64,000 nt of DNA, taken from the NCBI GenBank assembly GCA_947588835.1, contig CANPZS010000001.1, positions 1 to 64,000 of the forward strand. The letters are read 5' to 3'. Below the pieces are notes generated by a model that saw only the letters and a list, made by a program, of their open reading frames with translations, ran no database searches and was not told the DNA's origin. The stretch comes from an uncultured Bacteroidales bacterium (lineage in GTDB: Bacteria; Bacteroidota; Bacteroidia; Bacteroidales; UBA932). Position numbers and translations under genes: made by a program. Shown one piece after another: positions 57,670 through 64,000 of this stretch (positions are counted from its first letter, which is position 1; every line of letters begins with the position of its first letter).

Positions 57670-57702
57670 GAAAAACCGTCGCGGCGCTGTTCGCCACGAC
57701 GG
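57670..57702 (-). terminator. terminator of the reverse-strand accessory operon
   Basis: On the minus strand CCGTCGTGGCG, loop AACAG, CGCCGCGACGG (57702-57676; 11-bp stem with one mismatch), then TTTTTCTT. It lies below the wHTH remnant and above the fabH promoter, so it would insulate the fab operon from the accessory operon. Confidence 0.75.
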
Positions 57703-57767
57703 CCGCTTCTTTCAGGTCCTTCTGTCCACAGATGGCGTGAGTAATGCTCCGCTCCCGCTGTCGTGGA

Positions 57768-58019
57768 CCCTTTGAATGTGTAGTGAGTGCCCATGCCGGT
57801 TACGCCATGGACATCCAGCAACTTATCTAATTGTGTCAGCAATCGATACGCAGTTGTTTTGCTTACATTCAAGAGTCTTTGCACATCCGCATTGGCAATG
57901 CTGCCATTCTTGGCTACAAATTCAAGGATCGGGAAATATCTCTCGTCTATATTTTGTGCCCGTAATTGCGACTGTATGTCGGTATAAATGTAATGATAAT
58001 TTTCTAATTGAACGATGGC
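57768..58019 (-). pseudogene. orphan winged-helix C-terminal remnant
   Basis: From 58019 downwards an open frame without a start codon reads a complete small DNA-binding domain: QSQLRAQNIDERYFPILEF, then GSIANADVQRLLNVSKTTAY, RLLTQLDKLL and a wing GTHYTFKG. This matches the C-terminal winged helix seen on Fic-family and AlbA_2/AAA_4 proteins. It begins 18 nt below the stop of the intact AlbA_2 gene, so it is likely the tail of a lost or replaced paralogue. After TFKG the frame runs on as noise. The precise family is uncertain. Confidence 0.6.
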
Positions 58020-58037: not shown

Positions 58038-59549
58038 TTATTTTATGGTTGTTTTCCATATTTTAGCTGCTTCCGTAAGACGGTATTGCTGCTTGGGGTG
58101 GTTTGGTTGCTTAGGATACAGGAGTTTTATGGCTCCGTCAGCCAATGCGGGAGCAAAATAATGTTCACGGAATGATGTGCGATGTTTCAGCCCGACACCT
58201 GCCATCATTTCATTCATCGTCATATAGCCGTCGTTCATCGAGAGAATCAACTTCTGCACTTGAGCAGAACTTGGGTGGAACTTGGACGGAGCTTGAGCGG
58301 TGGTTGAGCGGTGGTTGAGCGGTGGTTGAGCGGTAGCTGAGCGGTAGCCGGGGCGCTTGAAGGTGACAAAAACGAAGCCGCCGTCCCATCGCCATTCAGG
58401 CTCTTCCAAGCCCGCTTCACGGCAGGAGTCCATGATGCGTTTTGCTCCGGAACCCCAGCTTTCCAGATAGGTTGATTTGTAAAGAGTCTCTGCAACCCTC
58501 AGGTTGTATGGATAGGACTCATGCGGTCGCTTGATCGATTCCGGGGTAATCTGCGGTGGGAATATACCCGGATTAGCGATTTCTATCCGGTCATCATAAA
58601 TCGCTATGCGATTGGTCAGTTTATACTTCTCCCATTGGCGGTGGCAGAGGCTGTTTATGAGGGCCTCTCTCAACGCCTTATAAGGCACTTCGAGGCGTTC
58701 TTCCCGTTGTAGGCTATGATTGGTAATCTTGCCTCCGAGATTAAGGTGCTTAAAGAAAAATGCCATGCCTGCGTCAAGCAGATCAAAGAAATTGCCTTCT
58801 GCGAGTTGATCATCAACGAATTCGTTCTTGTCCGTACCGACAAAACGGGCCATTTTCAACCGAAACTGCGGATATTCGTCTATCTTGTCGGAGAAAAGCA
58901 GGGTCGCTGCATTTGTGGGCACACCATTTTTCAACAACTTCCATTTAGCCAAAGTATCCACGATGGGCTCACTCATGGCGCTTGCCGGAATACGGCCGCC
59001 TTCTACGCCGAGACGGATGCAACCTTTGATATGCTTCTCATTCAAATCGGTGAAAGCAACACCCGCAGCCGTGTAGCTTTCCCAGGCATACGCCTGTGGC
59101 TGATGAGCACGGATACGCTCGTCGTACATATCCTGCGGCATGACCTTTGTCGTACTCTCGATTTTATAGTACGGACATCCGTGATACGTATGCGGGCGTT
59201 CGCCCCAGACCCAACCGTCAAAGTGCATGGCAATGACTTTGTTTCCGGGATGTTCCGGCACGTCGACATAATGGACATAAATATCGACAGCCGGCTCCAG
59301 CCCGGCCAAAGCCTGCCCTATCTCCCGTTTGGTGGTTTCCGTAACTTCCTGTCCGATTATCTTCAGCGCGTTCGGAGCAATCCCGAAGATCAGCCAGCCA
59401 CCCTCCGTGTTGAGGAAGGCGCATGCCGCGTGCATGCCGTCTTTCAATTCTCCGGTACTTTTTTTCAGCTCCAACGTCCGGGATTCGTCAAAGGCTATCA
59501 GTTCTTTTATATCATCGATCGTCATATCGTACAGATTATTTCCGGCCAT
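58038..59549 (-). CDS. AlbA_2/AAA_4 (COG2865) ATP-binding regulator-like protein
   Basis: This 503-residue protein has an N-terminal AlbA_2 (Schlafen-like) domain (about residues 10-140; SRTLELKKSTGELK, NTEGGWLIFGI), then a GHKL-type region with PYKALREALINSLCHRQW and NRIAIYDDRIEIANPG and the WGSGAKRIMD loop, typical of the COG2865 family. A Pro/Ser/Thr/Gln linker (about residues 395-430) comes from 11-bp DNA repeats, followed by a winged helix. Such proteins are often regulators or accessory components of defence loci. It lies 12 nt after the GIY-YIG gene. Function in this operon unknown. Confidence 0.8.
   Translation of the reverse strand: MAGNNLYDMTIDDIKELIAFDESRTLELKKSTGELKDGMHAACAFLNTEGGWLIFGIAPNALKIIGQEVTETTKREIGQALAGLEPAVDIYVHYVDVPEHPGNKVIAMHFDGWVWGERPHTYHGCPYYKIESTTKVMPQDMYDERIRAHQPQAYAWESYTAAGVAFTDLNEKHIKGCIRLGVEGGRIPASAMSEPIVDTLAKWKLLKNGVPTNAATLLFSDKIDEYPQFRLKMARFVGTDKNEFVDDQLAEGNFFDLLDAGMAFFFKHLNLGGKITNHSLQREERLEVPYKALREALINSLCHRQWEKYKLTNRIAIYDDRIEIANPGIFPPQITPESIKRPHESYPYNLRVAETLYKSTYLESWGSGAKRIMDSCREAGLEEPEWRWDGGFVFVTFKRPGYRSATAQPPLNHRSTTAQAPSKFHPSSAQVQKLILSMNDGYMTMNEMMAGVGLKHRTSFREHYFAPALADGAIKLLYPKQPNHPKQQYRLTEAAKIWKTTIK
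58259..58346. repeat. eight 11-bp tandem repeats inside the AlbA_2 gene
   Basis: Eight 11-bp units (plus-strand consensus gTTGAGCGGTg) fill 58259-58346; three central copies are nearly identical and the outer ones diverge. Eleven is not a multiple of three, so gain or loss of one unit shifts the frame. In the other two sense frames stops occur at 58247 and 58210, so either shift would remove the C-terminal winged helix. All frames of the repeat are open, giving an 11-residue peptide period (STTAQPPLNHR). Confidence 0.85.
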
Positions 59550-59561
59550 AATAAATAGCTG

Positions 59562-60734
59562 CTAAAGATATATAATTTGTTGAAATTTCGGATTATATTC
59601 AATGGATTTGCCTGCTATGATTGCGATTATGGCTTCTTCGATCACCTTGAGTGGCACGATGAACCATTCCCGGGGGCGGAAGCCGTCCACGGTCACTTGT
59701 AATTGCACGTCTGCAAAAAGTTTATGGATAAGCGCTTCGAAGGTCGAAGATTTAACGTTGTATACCTTCCATGTGGCAACGACTTCTACATCGGCACATA
59801 AGTACGTGGGTTCGTTCTTCGCGTTTGCAATACGGCTTTCTACTGAAGTGGTGGTGAACCCTATCTTATACAGGTCTTTGATGGCCCTTATTTCCGGTCT
59901 GACAGATTTTGAGCGCAATACATAGATTGTTCCACTTTCGACATCGTTGTTGCTGATTGTGAAATACTGCTGCAACTCTTCATCTGTGAACTCCGTGCAA
60001 TTGACTACAGACAGGCCTGTTACGGACAGATTTTTCGTTATCGTCTTATATTTGATGTCCGACTCTGTGCCATTTTCGTAGATTACCCGCGTGCGCCCGT
60101 CCCGGTCTCCGTGTCTATTGAACCCTTCGTCTTCAAAGGCTGCAAGATAACCGATCATGCCATCTTCAATGAAATAGCTCCCTACTTTCAGGTTCTTTAC
60201 GCTGAACTTGGTAAGGCGATACTTGCCGGATTTCAATCCTTGGTGAAGCTCCTTGAAGTTGCTTTCGTATCTGTCGAAATCTTCACAAGGCACTCGTTTC
60301 CCCACATATTCAGCTTCTTTGCGGGCATTAAGCCGCTCCCTCATGTAATCGGGGACATCGAACAATCCGGAGTCGGCAGTGTCCCCGGTATCAGCGAACA
60401 AGGGGTCGTTGAAAATTGCTTCAAGCTGTTCTTCTTCGGTAGGCTCACGTTGATATTCAGGCTGAGGCGAAGGAAGGATACCATAGGTATCAAACAGACG
60501 GCATCGCTCAATTTTCGTTTCGTCTTTCAGCAATCCGACCCATTTATGATAAAGTGAAGTTTCGTCTGGAGTATTATCTTTCGGAAGCCGATTCTTGGCT
60601 TCATAGAAAGCCAGTATCTCCTGAAAACCTGCAATAAGGCGGTCGCTTGATGTTGGCCGTTTCTGCGGAGCGGTGACATCAGCGAACAAGGGGTCTTCAA
60701 ATATCTTTTCGAGTTCCTTGTCCCAGTTGATCAT
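59562..60734 (-). CDS. GIY-YIG (T5orf172-like) nuclease with duplicated DPLFAD motif
   Basis: This 390-residue protein has a C-terminal GIY-YIG fold: TIYVL (269-273), YKIGFTT (289-295), SRI (300-302), and the likely metal-binding E333 in FEALIHKLFADV, the T5orf172/MUG113 branch. The N-terminal half is unusual: LEKIFEDPLFADV (about 8-20) and LEAIFNDPLFADT (about 104-116) repeat one motif. A middle region (about 155-260) has no recognised fold. It overlaps the helicase gene by 4 nt (ATGA). I infer the DNA-cutting component of a restriction-like system. Confidence 0.8.
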   Translation of the reverse strand: MINWDKELEKIFEDPLFADVTAPQKRPTSSDRLIAGFQEILAFYEAKNRLPKDNTPDETSLYHKWVGLLKDETKIERCRLFDTYGILPSPQPEYQREPTEEEQLEAIFNDPLFADTGDTADSGLFDVPDYMRERLNARKEAEYVGKRVPCEDFDRYESNFKELHQGLKSGKYRLTKFSVKNLKVGSYFIEDGMIGYLAAFEDEGFNRHGDRDGRTRVIYENGTESDIKYKTITKNLSVTGLSVVNCTEFTDEELQQYFTISNNDVESGTIYVLRSKSVRPEIRAIKDLYKIGFTTTSVESRIANAKNEPTYLCADVEVVATWKVYNVKSSTFEALIHKLFADVQLQVTVDGFRPREWFIVPLKVIEEAIIAIIAGKSIEYNPKFQQIIYL

Positions 60735-62704
60735 TGGTGCTGTGCGAGTTTATTGCGTTTAAGTTGACGAAGGTGTTCGATAGCGAGCGCAATGCGGCGA
60801 GCCAACGGATCGCCGTCGGTAATATCCGGCATAGTTTTGCCCGGGTTTTCTTCTCGCCACTTGGGGAGGTATTTTGTAAAAAGCAAAATTGCTTCCTCAT
60901 CAGTAAGTTTTTCGGAGCGCTTTTCCTCTATAACATACTGAATGGTGCGCAGCACTTCAGGGGTCAGCGATTTGGATACGATTTCGTAAGCTCTCTGGAA
61001 AGGATTGATCTCGGCTATAAGGTTGATGTCAAGGTCATTGATATTGACAAATCTGTTGGCAATCCGAATGAGTTTATTGCCGGAATCATCGGGCACTACT
61101 ACTTGCTCGCCCTGTGTGGCGATAGTCAGGATTGTATGCTTTGCAACGGCATCGACTTCTTCCTCGGTTAGGTCGGGATAAGTATCTCGGATGATTTTCG
61201 GGATATAAACCTCGGTAATCATTTCTGTCATGCCTTCGCCGATGATAGCTTCCCGGATATTCTTATCAGAAAGCGTGGTTGCAACAAGAGTGTCGAGATC
61301 GTTCTCGACGATAGCCTTGGTCTTGTCATTCAGAGCCGGCAGACCTTTCACCTCAATGACATGATCTTCCTCCGGTGCAGTTGTCTTGTCTGGCTTTTTT
61401 TCATCATCCGATTTGGTCTTGAAGTTCCATTTGGGAGCCATAACCTGTTCCATTAGCAACGAGGCTGCAATAGCTTTCAGAAAATCATTTACGGCCATCG
61501 AGACATCGTCTTGCGCCGCATCAGGGTTGGGGATAAGGTTCGTGAACTGTGCATGGGTCTTTCCCTCACAGTCGCGTGTGCAACGACCGATGATTTGCAC
61601 TACTTCCGTAAGCGAGGCGCGGATGCCGATCGTGATGCAGTGCTCACACCATTCCCAATCGAAGCCCTCTTTGGCAGTACCGAGCGCGATGAGAATGTCC
61701 ATTGAATCGCGGTGGTTCATTCTCCGCAGATAGTTTTGCAATGCGTTTCTGCGTTCCGCATTGTCTTCCACGAGATTGCCGACCGTCAACAGACGGCCGT
61801 CGTTCGTCCTGACTTTATATAGATAATTGTCATAATCGCACGATTCAATTTCTCCGATGCACTTGATGATTTCGGCAACTTGATCGTATTTGTCCATAAA
61901 CGCTCCGGTCTTGCTTTTGGGGTGCGGAATGTGGATAAGCGTTTTCTTTGTCGTGTCCAGCACATCGGGAATAGCCGTGAGGTAGTTTCCTTGAAAGAAG
62001 CTATACCCGATGCCAAGACTTTTTAACCAACGGTAGCCGTTCAGTTGCTGGTAATAGTTGTAATTTATGGCCGGCTGGAATAACGCCTCATCTTCGGGGC
62101 GCATCACCGGCACGGCATCGCCTCTAAAATACGAGCCCGTCATTGCGAGAATGTGTGCCGATGTTTCGTTTAGAAGTCGGCGAATGAGCGAACCGAGGCG
62201 GTTCCCTTCGTCGGCCGAGCCATGGTGGAATTCGTCGATGCCGAAAAAAACGTTATCAAGTTTCCGTGCGTCAATACCGTTGAGCGAGTTAAGCAACGTG
62301 GTATGGGTGCAGACAAGTTTTGTCGCAGTCGGATTGTCAAGGAATTCCCGAAGTCTCGATTTCTTTGAGTTTTCACTACCGGCTGCAATGCAAAGGTTCC
62401 AATACGGAGCGACTTTCCAATCCTCGAAAAAGCCGGATTTCTTCAAAGGTGTGTCGTTGAAGCTGCGCCCTATGTTTTGCTGCGGCACGGCCACAATTAC
62501 CTTTTTGATACCTTGATGGGCGAGTTTGTCAAGGGCCACAAACATCATGGCGCGGCTCTTGCCCGATGCCGGAGGTGCCTTTACAAGCAGGTGCTGACGA
62601 TGACGCTGGGCATAGACCATTGCCTGCATTTCACGCATACCGAGTGCATCAGTAGCGCTCGACTTGCCCGTTTGGGCGTATTGTACTTCAACGAGATTAG
62701 TCAT
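60731..62704 (-). CDS. DEAD/DEAH-box SF2 helicase (type III Res-like)
   Basis: This 657-residue helicase has Walker A APPASGKS (residues 43-50), motif II D157-E-F-H, motif III AMTGS (187-191), motif V GTAKEGFDWEWCEHCI and motif VI QIIGRCTRD. The C-terminal third has no known nuclease domain and would be a partner-binding region. It resembles the motor of restriction systems that combine a methyltransferase and separate nuclease. The start at 62704 (MTNLVEVQYAQ) lies 4 nt below the DUF2971 stop; a start 8 codons upstream would overlap that gene. Confidence 0.85.
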   Translation of the reverse strand: MTNLVEVQYAQTGKSSATDALGMREMQAMVYAQRHRQHLLVKAPPASGKSRAMMFVALDKLAHQGIKKVIVAVPQQNIGRSFNDTPLKKSGFFEDWKVAPYWNLCIAAGSENSKKSRLREFLDNPTATKLVCTHTTLLNSLNGIDARKLDNVFFGIDEFHHGSADEGNRLGSLIRRLLNETSAHILAMTGSYFRGDAVPVMRPEDEALFQPAINYNYYQQLNGYRWLKSLGIGYSFFQGNYLTAIPDVLDTTKKTLIHIPHPKSKTGAFMDKYDQVAEIIKCIGEIESCDYDNYLYKVRTNDGRLLTVGNLVEDNAERRNALQNYLRRMNHRDSMDILIALGTAKEGFDWEWCEHCITIGIRASLTEVVQIIGRCTRDCEGKTHAQFTNLIPNPDAAQDDVSMAVNDFLKAIAASLLMEQVMAPKWNFKTKSDDEKKPDKTTAPEEDHVIEVKGLPALNDKTKAIVENDLDTLVATTLSDKNIREAIIGEGMTEMITEVYIPKIIRDTYPDLTEEEVDAVAKHTILTIATQGEQVVVPDDSGNKLIRIANRFVNINDLDINLIAEINPFQRAYEIVSKSLTPEVLRTIQYVIEEKRSEKLTDEEAILLFTKYLPKWREENPGKTMPDITDGDPLARRIALAIEHLRQLKRNKLAQHQ

Positions 62705-62708
62705 ATAT

Positions 62709-63605
62709 TCAAATTCTATATGGAACATTAGATTGTAAAATCCGACTCTTATCCCAAGTTCTTACGCCTTTATAGTCCAAAAAGATCAAAATTGATTCTC
62801 TTACCCTATTAAAATCGGCAGTAGGTCCAACAATTATGTTTTCAACACAATCAAATGGCATGGAATATTCTATATATGGAAGAAGAATCCCTTTCCGTTC
62901 CCTAAACAGAAGCTTGGATTCATTATTATTAATTGTGATTCGAGCCTCTTCTTCTGCATTATAACACCAATTTTTGATGCGAATGCCTATATGCCCACAT
63001 ATAACAGTATGTAAAACGTGCGCACGACTATAATATGGCATATTGTCTCCATGCTCCATTGATTCTTTCACAACACTTAGAGGAATCTCCTTATCTATCT
63101 CAAGGTATATCTCGTTTATGTCTTCCTTAAATTTACTGGTTAAACATTGGATTACATCGTTGCAGTTCGGATTACAATAGAAGCAATCTTTTAGGAGTAT
63201 ATTGGCTTCTAATAATTTTTGATAATTAAATACAAGAGCTACTCCATTGCCGTTAGAAGCATACATATCCCACATGTGGAGTGAATCATATGCTTTAGAA
63301 AAAGATATAAGATAGGGACAAATTGCTTGGCCTGTAGAGGTCATACGATAATTATCAAGAATATCATGATATAATTTGTTATCAACCAAAGTTTTAGCCC
63401 GACATTCATTGGGCACTTTTAGCTCATTTTCAATTTGATCTATTATCTCTGTGCAAAATCTTGCACCAAACTCATATTCATTAGGGTCGTTCATGTACTT
63501 GTAATGAGTAGCCCATAATTTAATATTGGGTTGATTTTCAGTATAGTCTTTGAACATTCCAAGAAGTCCAGAGGTTGTAGTATAATGTAACCGAAGTAAA
63601 CTCAT
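62709..63605 (-). CDS. DUF2971 domain protein, AT-rich
   Basis: This 298-residue protein fits DUF2971: LHYTTTSGLLGMF at the start, LWATHYKYMNDPNEYEFG, the core AICPYLISFSKAYDSLHMWDMYASNGNGVALVF in meaning (about residues 95-126) and the C-terminal PFDCVENIIVGP. DUF2971 proteins recur in defence islands but have no established activity. Base composition is clearly more AT-rich than all neighbours, and codon use is different, which suggests separate acquisition. Its ATG overlaps the methyltransferase stop by one base (TAATG). Confidence 0.82.
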   Translation of the reverse strand: MSLLRLHYTTTSGLLGMFKDYTENQPNIKLWATHYKYMNDPNEYEFGARFCTEIIDQIENELKVPNECRAKTLVDNKLYHDILDNYRMTSTGQAICPYLISFSKAYDSLHMWDMYASNGNGVALVFNYQKLLEANILLKDCFYCNPNCNDVIQCLTSKFKEDINEIYLEIDKEIPLSVVKESMEHGDNMPYYSRAHVLHTVICGHIGIRIKNWCYNAEEEARITINNNESKLLFRERKGILLPYIEYSMPFDCVENIIVGPTADFNRVRESILIFLDYKGVRTWDKSRILQSNVPYRI

Positions 63606-64000
63606 TATTTTGTCATTTTAGTGTAAAGTTTGAAAAGGTATTCGAGGCGTTCTTCGTCGGAGGTGAACGGATTGGGGCGGTAAATGCGCTCTACGGCGAG
63701 GTCGAGTTGATGATGGGCTTCGAGCAGCTCGTCGGGCATGGTTTCAGGATTATACATCTCGCCGAGTGTCATATCAAAATGCTCGTCGCGGATATTGAGA
63801 ATATTTTGAGCAAGACGCTCCAGATCTCCTTTCTCGGCTGTTGTTAGCTGCGGAAACGGGAAAGTATTGTAGCATAGTGTCGCAGAATAACGATAATCGG
63901 TTTTCAATCGTCCGCCAACAGTGCGAACCCATATATTATGCATTTTTGATGTTAGTAATGCGAATAGCCATTTCTCAGCATCGTAAATAGCAAAAGCTGA
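63605..64000 (-). CDS. MmeI/YeeA-like DNA methyltransferase, C-terminus only
   Basis: The frame is open to the window end, so the gene is partial at its 5' side. The visible ~131 residues begin SAFAIYDAEKWLFALLTS and continue MHNIWVRTVGGRLKTDYRYS, then YNTFPFPQL and a helical end (LDLAVERIYRPNPF, ERLEYLFKLYTKM). This is the target-recognition and C-terminal part of class I SAM-dependent adenine methyltransferases of the MmeI/YeeA group. The catalytic NPPY motif lies outside. With helicase and GIY-YIG nuclease it implies a restriction-modification-type system. Confidence 0.82.
   Translation of the reverse strand, partial: SAFAIYDAEKWLFALLTSKMHNIWVRTVGGRLKTDYRYSATLCYNTFPFPQLTTAEKGDLERLAQNILNIRDEHFDMTLGEMYNPETMPDELLEAHHQLDLAVERIYRPNPFTSDEERLEYLFKLYTKMTK

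What the first reader, a model, noticed from the sequence alone, without database searches (positions are those of the whole stretch)
58038..64000. Five-gene restriction-like operon combining methyltransferase, DUF2971, SF2 helicase, GIY-YIG nuclease and AlbA_2 protein
Seen: all on the minus strand with 1-nt, 4-nt (gap), 4-nt (overlap) and 12-nt junctions, ended by a terminator at 57670-57702. Known: the MmeI/YeeA-type methyltransferase, SF2 motor and GIY-YIG nuclease would supply modification, translocation and cleavage; I recall B. subtilis yeeA-yeeB-yeeC as a comparable trio but cannot verify it here. Inference: the DUF2971 insertion and the switchable AlbA_2 gene make this an uncharacterised variant with accessory control or effector proteins.
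Basis: partly seen in the sequence, partly recalled or inferred. Interest (0 to 1): 0.8.

Follow-up and report, generated by a model that had tools for sequence, protein, structure and literature searches.

The report
Restriction operon with swappable effector slot
A gut bacterium carries a known three-gene DNA-marking-and-cutting system (methylase, motor, nuclease), and comparison of about 90 relatives shows that the gap between its first two genes is a socket into which different toxin-like or defence genes are plugged, here one (DUF2971) predicted to fold like DNA-modifying ADP-ribosyltransferase toxins.

Summary
The five genes, junctions and terminator are real, but they are not one five-part system. 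The conserved core is a trio: a MmeI-like methyltransferase without a nuclease motif, an SF2 helicase and a GIY-YIG nuclease, i.e. the published dnmA-yeeB-yeeC ("Type I-like") restriction system. DUF2971 occupies a slot between methylase and helicase: 57 of 95 loci have >300 bp there, while 0 of 102 have >150 bp between helicase and nuclease. Elsewhere the slot holds Schlafen/AlbA_2 proteins, AbiJ, YhcG, zeta toxin, RhuM, DUF3990, toxin-antitoxin pairs or a PARIS fusion. Cargo changes faster than the core and is AT-rich (DUF2971 34% GC, helicase 49%); the methylase's recognition domain also varies fast. A confident DUF2971 model best matches ADP-ribosyltransferases (DarT, Z 7.6). I propose a restriction core with an exchangeable backup effector released when restriction fails, like PrrC or PARIS; the trigger is inference. 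The AlbA_2 gene is a rarer add-on with an 11-nt repeat that could switch its C-terminal domain. The 9.6-kb block sits where eight congeners have 160-240 bp. New variant of a known kind.

The parts
63605..64000 (-). C-terminal part (TRD end and C-terminal domain) of a MmeI/DnmA-type N6-adenine DNA methyltransferase; the whole gene is contig 63605-66349 (914 aa), N-terminal nuclease motif absent
   Evidence: Pfam MmeI_TRD/MmeI_C, MmeI_Mtase/hel/N on the full gene; aligns to MmeI 5hr4 only from residue 124, or profile position 93; NPPY and FDPACGSGNF invariant in 18 relatives
62709..63605 (-). DUF2971 protein, cargo of the methylase-helicase slot; predicted ADP-ribosyltransferase fold
   Evidence: Pfam PF11185; AF2 mean pLDDT 91.7; best structural matches DarT, Tpt1, CteC, NarE; conserved H7, S101-x-S103, E218-x-E220 in slot proteins; GC 34% against 46-49% of neighbours
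60731..62704 (-). SF2 (DEAD/ResIII) helicase, YeeB-like; ORF opens at 62728, likely start Met at 62704
   Evidence: Pfam DEAD/ResIII/Helicase_C; APPASGKS, DEFH and the GRC-RD motif conserved in 21 relatives
59562..60734 (-). GIY-YIG / T5orf172 nuclease, YeeC-like
   Evidence: Pfam MUG113 and T5orf172; GIY-YIG residues I270-Y271, K290-I-G, R301, E333, H337, E356-W invariant in 16 relatives
58038..59549 (-). Schlafen/AlbA_2 protein with HATPase_c_4 and C-terminal Fic-like_C domain; second, less conserved accessory gene
   Evidence: Pfam; related gene after the nuclease in L008 (82%), remnant in L004
58293..58345 (-). 11-nt tandem repeat (4.8 copies) in the linker before the Fic-like_C domain; loss or gain of one unit gives a 442- or 437-aa protein without that domain
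   Evidence: TRF; in-silico slippage
57674..57704 (-). intrinsic-terminator-like hairpin after the operon

Best explanation
The operon is a DnmA-YeeB-YeeC ('Type I-like') restriction-modification system that carries an exchangeable backup effector between its methylase and helicase genes. The methylase marks a short asymmetric site with m6A through its variable target-recognition domain. Helicase and GIY-YIG nuclease, guided by the methylase, act on unmarked DNA (inferred from domains and from the published Vibrio phenotype). The slot gene, here DUF2971, is predicted to be an ADP-ribosyltransferase of the DarT/Tpt1 kind. It would modify nucleic acid or another cell component and stop growth when the restriction core is inhibited or bypassed by a phage, as PrrC does inside EcoprrI and PARIS does after Ocr. 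Shown: the core, the slot, its rapid cargo turnover, the foreign base composition of the cargo, an empty site in congeners. Predicted from structure: the ART fold. Inferred: toxicity, control by the core, trigger. The AlbA_2 gene is a second backup effector of the Schlafen type whose C-terminal domain may be phase-variable.
For: Core order methylase-(slot)-helicase-GIY-YIG in Bacteroidales, Psychrobacter, plasmids of Enterobacterales, Vibrio, Aeromonas, Rhodococcus, Niallia and viral contigs. Slot >300 bp in 57/95 loci against 0/102 gaps >150 bp at the helicase-nuclease junction (Fisher p 2.7e-24, not corrected for relatedness or a few duplicate records). Cargo types needing separate events on the helicase tree: DUF2971 6 changes for 6 rows, AlbA_2 8 for 9, Cys-rich 4/4, AbiJ 3/3, YhcG 3/3. 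Helicases that are 97% identical (L009/L010) carry different cargo. Slot GC lower than own helicase in 52/55, median -8.3 points. Cargo identities are largely toxin or defence families: AbiJ_NTD4, YhcG, zeta toxin, RhuM, DUF3990, AriAB/PARIS (382 bits), HigBA-like and RelE-type pairs. DUF2971 model: the six best Foldseek hits are DarT or Tpt1; VIA Z 7.6 to DarT, next Tpt1, CteC, NarE. TRD 44% identical to L004 while the other segments are 82-93%. Empty site in eight congeners. Precedents: PrrC/PARIS as RM guardians, backup effectors inside BREX loci including Schlafen-HATPase-wHTH.
Against: B. subtilis dnmA-yeeB-yeeC gave no protection against three phages or plasmid uptake, so the core may not restrict everywhere. 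Foldseek E-values for the ART match are weak (best 0.046) and Z <8 can reflect a common arrangement; profile searches find no DarT by sequence; H7 is not conserved across all DUF2971 (Y8, D40, W112, Y115, K211, E220, R222 are, E218 nearly). No antitoxin gene lies beside DUF2971 here, so silence of the enzyme must come from the core or from a need for activation, which is untested. Several cargo families (c2, Cys-rich, membrane proteins) have no known function.
Confidence: 0.5

Rival explanations
1. The slot is only a neutral hot spot: selfish or stabilising genes (toxin-antitoxin pairs, RhuM, zeta) settle between methylase and helicase because insertions there do not break the core; they have no functional link to restriction.
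For: Some slots hold toxin-antitoxin pairs on the opposite strand (L035, L037, L040, L045, L046); cargo is very diverse.
Against: Most cargo is on the operon strand with start and stop codons overlapping or abutting the neighbours by a few bases, which suggests co-translation; the helicase-nuclease junction is never used; cargo is mostly of defence or toxin families.
Confidence: 0.25
2. DUF2971 and other slot proteins are part of the restriction enzyme itself (for instance an activity that modifies or damages foreign DNA), not a backup effector.
For: DarT relatives modify DNA; position between methylase and helicase; likely co-translation.
Against: Psychrobacter, the plasmid copies examined and several Prevotella-type copies have an empty slot with an intact helicase and nuclease; cargo families are unrelated to one another.
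Confidence: 0.12
3. The locus is a relic in which only the methylase still works, as proposed for B. subtilis, and the accessory genes are passengers.
For: B. subtilis data; coding remnants of other genes lie at both ends of the block.
Against: Intact frames and motifs in all core genes, dN/dS 0.07-0.18, continuing diversification of the TRD, phage sensitivity after deletion of the V. crassostreae homologues reported in the literature cited.
Confidence: 0.1

Closest known systems
DnmA-YeeB-YeeC of Bacillus subtilis ('Type I-like' RM; MmeI homologues without nuclease motif; Nye 2020 PMC7261158, Fernandez 2023 PMC9973331)
   Same: Same three families in the same order: MmeI-like m6A methylase without PD-ExK, SF2 helicase, T5orf172/GIY-YIG nuclease
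   Different: The Bacteroidales copies carry cargo between methylase and helicase; the published neighbourhood study notes only unspecified 'uncharacterized' neighbours. In many Prevotella-type copies the nuclease gene is split and carries an ASCH-like tail
PrrC in EcoprrI and PARIS (AriAB), guardians of restriction
   Same: Effector gene embedded in an RM operon or sensing anti-restriction; a PARIS fusion sits in this very slot in L032
   Different: Different effector fold (predicted ADP-ribosyltransferase); trigger not known
Backup effectors in BREX loci (PMC12839542), including Schlafen-HATPase-wHTH proteins
   Same: Same layered design and one shared effector type (AlbA_2/HATPase/wHTH)
   Different: Core is not BREX (no PglZ among the operon genes); one fixed slot with rapid swapping; cargo includes ART-like, RhuM, YhcG, AbiJ and TA genes
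DarTG (DNA ADP-ribosyltransferase toxin)
   Same: Predicted fold of DUF2971; conserved E-x-E in the last third of the protein, just before a strand, as expected for an ART
   Different: No sequence match; no DarG macrodomain antitoxin in the operon; substrate unknown
MmeI (Type IIL)
   Same: Methylase, helical spacer, TRD and C-terminal domains
   Different: N-terminal nuclease absent; cleavage presumably by separate helicase and GIY-YIG proteins

Membership tests
DnmA-YeeB-YeeC Type I-like RM | MmeI-like m6A methylase with NPPY and without PD-ExK nuclease motif | tested here: met
DnmA-YeeB-YeeC Type I-like RM | SF2 helicase next to a T5orf172/GIY-YIG nuclease downstream, motifs intact | tested here: met
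DnmA-YeeB-YeeC Type I-like RM | direct sequence relationship with the B. subtilis proteins | not tested
   B. subtilis sequence was not at hand; a Bacillaceae (Niallia) plasmid copy has the same trio
DnmA-YeeB-YeeC Type I-like RM | m6A at an asymmetric site; restriction of unmethylated DNA | not testable with these tools
   needs long-read methylation data and phage or plasmid assays
Type IIG/IIL (MmeI) | nuclease and methylase in one polypeptide (D...ExK in the N-terminal domain) | tested here: not met
   no such motif in the N-terminal ~120 residues of 18 relatives; no alignment of this part to MmeI
BREX | PglZ and BrxC/PglY in the locus | tested here: not met
   operon genes match no such family; flanks are fab genes and a LytTR regulator
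ADP-ribosyltransferase (DarT-like) for DUF2971 | ART fold | tested here: met
   AF2 pLDDT 91.7; DarT Z 6.4-7.6, Tpt1 5.3-5.5, CteC, NarE; strength moderate, on a predicted model
ADP-ribosyltransferase (DarT-like) for DUF2971 | class motif [H-Y-E] or [R-S-E] | tested here: inconclusive
   slot proteins keep H7, S101-x-S103, E218-x-E220; across wider DUF2971 the E-x-E holds (E220 invariant, E218 nearly so), H7 does not
ADP-ribosyltransferase (DarT-like) for DUF2971 | NAD+-dependent transfer | not testable with these tools
   biochemistry needed
PARIS (for the slot cargo of L032) | AriA ATPase fused or next to AriB TOPRIM/DUF4435 | tested here: met
   PADLOC AriAB 382 bits over residues 126-625; Pfam DUF4435 and AAA_21

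The most novel reading that the evidence does not exclude
DnmA-YeeB-YeeC systems of Bacteroidota are a chassis with a dedicated effector socket, and DUF2971 (a common family of unknown function) is a new family of ADP-ribosyltransferase toxins held silent by, and released upon failure of, the methylase-helicase complex, so that the restriction machine itself is the antitoxin.
Probability: 0.3. Interest if true: 0.8.

Novelty: new variant of a known kind. Interest (0 to 1): 0.6.

Why it matters
It suggests a testable second layer for the widespread dnmA-yeeB-yeeC trio, whose laboratory Bacillus copy (no cargo is described there) appeared inactive. One fixed socket, filled by many unrelated toxin or defence genes, is a ready source of candidate anti-phage effectors (several cargo families have no known domain) and lets one test whether restriction enzymes act as guards for suicide effectors. 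It also offers a functional lead, an ADP-ribosyltransferase fold, for DUF2971, for which the held literature has a single passing mention.

Tried and rejected
Five-gene unit: rejected, since cargo differs in nearly every close relative. Self-contained type IIG enzyme: rejected (no nuclease motif). BREX or DISARM membership: PADLOC and NCBIfam matches to DrmMI/DrmD and PglX models are methylase-domain hits far below the cut-offs. The exact 11-nt repeat was searched in 295 genomes of the order and found only here; the period, not the sequence, recurs. The second structure job, on the c2 cargo family, gave a poor model (pLDDT 64) and was not searched. Sequence profile of DUF2971 against PDB gave no meaningful hit. 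The BFVD (viral) fold search gave nothing below E 0.3. Repeats within each flank of the insert: none of 14 bp or more; repeats between the two flanks were not tested, so the insertion mechanism is unknown. Long plus-strand ORFs in the slots of L035, L037, L040, L045, L046 were rejected as spurious in favour of minus-strand toxin-antitoxin-like genes. A dN/dS value for the helicase against L004 is invalid (wrong frame used) and is not cited.

Full report
What is there. The window is contig C1:1-64000 of a 2.15 Mb assembly. The contig continues, and the methyltransferase is complete at 63605-66349 (914 aa). Domains: MmeI_N/hel/Mtase/TRD/C, DUF2971, DEAD/ResIII, T5orf172/MUG113, and SLFN_AlbA_2-HATPase_c_4-Fic-like_C.

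The core is a known trio. The methylase aligns with MmeI (5hr4) only from residue 124 on, and in a family profile only from position 93. The N-terminal ~120 residues are poorly conserved and show no D...ExK in 18 relatives. The helicase keeps its SF2 motifs (APPASGKS, DEFH, GRC-RD). The nuclease keeps the GIY-YIG residues. B. subtilis dnmA-yeeB-yeeC has the same make-up and was called Type I-like. It methylates GACGAG but did not restrict in B. subtilis, while deletion of the Vibrio crassostreae homologues is reported to raise sensitivity to some phages. Copies occur on plasmids of several phyla.

The slot. Helicase relatives were fetched from species genomes (53 loci), from the order (extended), from viral contigs and from plasmids. 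Of 95 loci with the methylase upstream, 57 have more than 300 bp between methylase and helicase. Of 102 with the nuclease, none has more than 150 bp between helicase and nuclease (Fisher p 2.7e-24). These counts include a few duplicate records and closely related copies, so the p-value is indicative only. On the tree, 42 of 48 rows of the Bacteroidales branch have an occupied slot, against 10 of 41 elsewhere. The ten plasmid copies read (some with a methylase gene cut by an IS element or the record start) have an empty slot.

Cargo. DUF2971 (window, L005, L014, L017, L018, L026); AlbA_2/Schlafen with HATPase and wHTH (L010, L015, L020-L022, L047, L048, L114, L115); AbiJ_NTD4; YhcG/DUF1016; zeta toxin; RhuM (eight loci); DUF3990 with DUF3791; HigBA-like; AriAB = PARIS (L032, 382 bits); FRG-like; minus-strand RelE-type pairs; and families without a name, two of them frequent. 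The FRG and RelE-type assignments, and membership of L114 in AlbA_2, rest on my reading of the sequences, not on a profile scan.

Exchange. On a helicase tree of 89 rows DUF2971 needs 6 changes for 6 rows, AlbA_2 8 for 9, Cys-rich 4 for 4, and AbiJ and YhcG 3 for 3 each; empty slots and RhuM are clustered. Helicases that are 97% identical (L009/L010) carry different cargo. Slot DNA has lower GC than its own helicase in 52 of 55 loci, median -8.3 points; in the window DUF2971 is 34.0% against 49% (helicase) and 46% (methylase). The methylase TRD is the other hypervariable part: 44% identity to L004 against 90, 93, 82 and 91% for the four other segments. The system therefore changes two things independently: what it recognises and what it carries.

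DUF2971. The AF2 model from 23 sequences has mean pLDDT 91.7, pTM 0.87. Foldseek's six best PDB hits are DarT (five) and Tpt1 (one), all with weak E-values from 0.046. VIA-align puts DarT first (Z 7.6, 3.2 A, 139 residues), then Tpt1 (5.5), the ART effector CteC and NarE; all rows above Z 3 but one (an OTU deubiquitinase) are ADP-ribosyltransferase-fold proteins. In the six slot proteins H7 (first strand), S101-x-S103 (a central strand) and E218-x-E220 are invariant, reminiscent of the ART class motifs named in the DarT1 paper. In the wider family E220 is invariant and E218 nearly so, H7 is not. I take the fold as likely (about 0.75), an active transferase as probable (0.6), and DNA as its target as open.

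How it may work. Inference: methylase and helicase form the sensor-motor, the GIY-YIG protein cuts, and the slot gene is a backup effector. Precedents are PrrC inside EcoprrI and PARIS as guardians of restriction, and auxiliary effectors inside BREX loci, among them Schlafen-HATPase-wHTH proteins, the architecture of the AlbA_2 gene here. PARIS sits in this slot in L032. No antitoxin is encoded beside DUF2971, so either the core restrains it or it needs a trigger.

The AlbA_2 gene. It follows the nuclease here and in L008 (82% over residues 9-408); L004 has a remnant. An 11-nt repeat precedes its Fic-like_C domain. A change by one unit gives 442- or 437-aa proteins that lack the domain. Relatives that end in this domain have 11- or 22-nt repeats with unrelated units. 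Across 30 sampled Fic-like_C domains of the order, linker repeats of 11 (or 22/33) nt occur in about 8 and of 12 nt in about 15. No variation within a population was seen, so phase variation is a proposal.

Arrival. In eight congeners read across this site (L177-L183, L186) the fabH and LytTR matches are 160-240 bp apart, whereas the window genome has about 9.6 kb between them (L184 and L185 are arranged differently). Relatives of the helicase are absent from 60 other genomes, 36 of the same genus, yet it is 85-92% identical to copies in scattered Bacteroidales. Horizontal transfer is the simple reading.

Verdict. Observation confirmed. The five-gene unit is not supported; the trio plus exchangeable slot is. 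The trio is known; the slot and the DUF2971 fold are the new parts, as far as the held literature shows. Statements made without a call number rest on my own knowledge or are inference.

Noticed in passing
window 58293-58345; L187, L191, L192, L193; L199, L201, L207, L211, L213, L215: Linkers before Fic-like_C domains carry tandem repeats of exactly 11 (or 22/33) or 12 nt with unrelated unit sequences; the 11-nt class would frame-shift the domain on slippage. Recurrent 11/12-nt periods might reflect phase variation or DNA-level constraints.
   Followed up: partly
window 57720-57990 (-): Coding remnant of a different winged-helix domain (VQRLLNVSKTTAYRLLTQLDKLLDVHGVTGMGTHYTFKG) right after the AlbA_2 stop, perhaps a displaced alternative C-terminus or the end of a lost gene.
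   Followed up: no
L002 10380-10700 (contig C1:66379-66699, -): Upstream of the methylase an ORF ends in what looks like the tail of an XRE-type regulator (GKVPPSLDMHVRIAKLLNIDKR); several relatives have other small genes there, L006 a DUF3990-like gene with a small partner.
   Followed up: partly
L035, L038, L040, L042, L045, L046, L049, L098: The nuclease gene is split: a separate ORF matching the N-terminal ~90 residues, then the GIY-YIG part; in the Prevotella-type copies the latter has an ASCH-like C-terminal extension.
   Followed up: partly
L029 5994-8668, L030 6578-9264, L128 3780-6495: The methylase is split into two ORFs in or near its TRD (before it in L029 and L030; in L030 and L128 with overlapping ends), resembling separate HsdM and HsdS genes.
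   Followed up: no
window 59562-60734, protein residues about 10-20 and 107-118: The nuclease protein has a twice-occurring acidic motif (IFEDPLFADV, IFNDPLFADT) in its N-terminal half, possibly a docking peptide.
   Followed up: no
G083 contig 69, 4923-5738 (L198): Three Fic-like_C domains in a row inside one 737-aa ORF.
   Followed up: no
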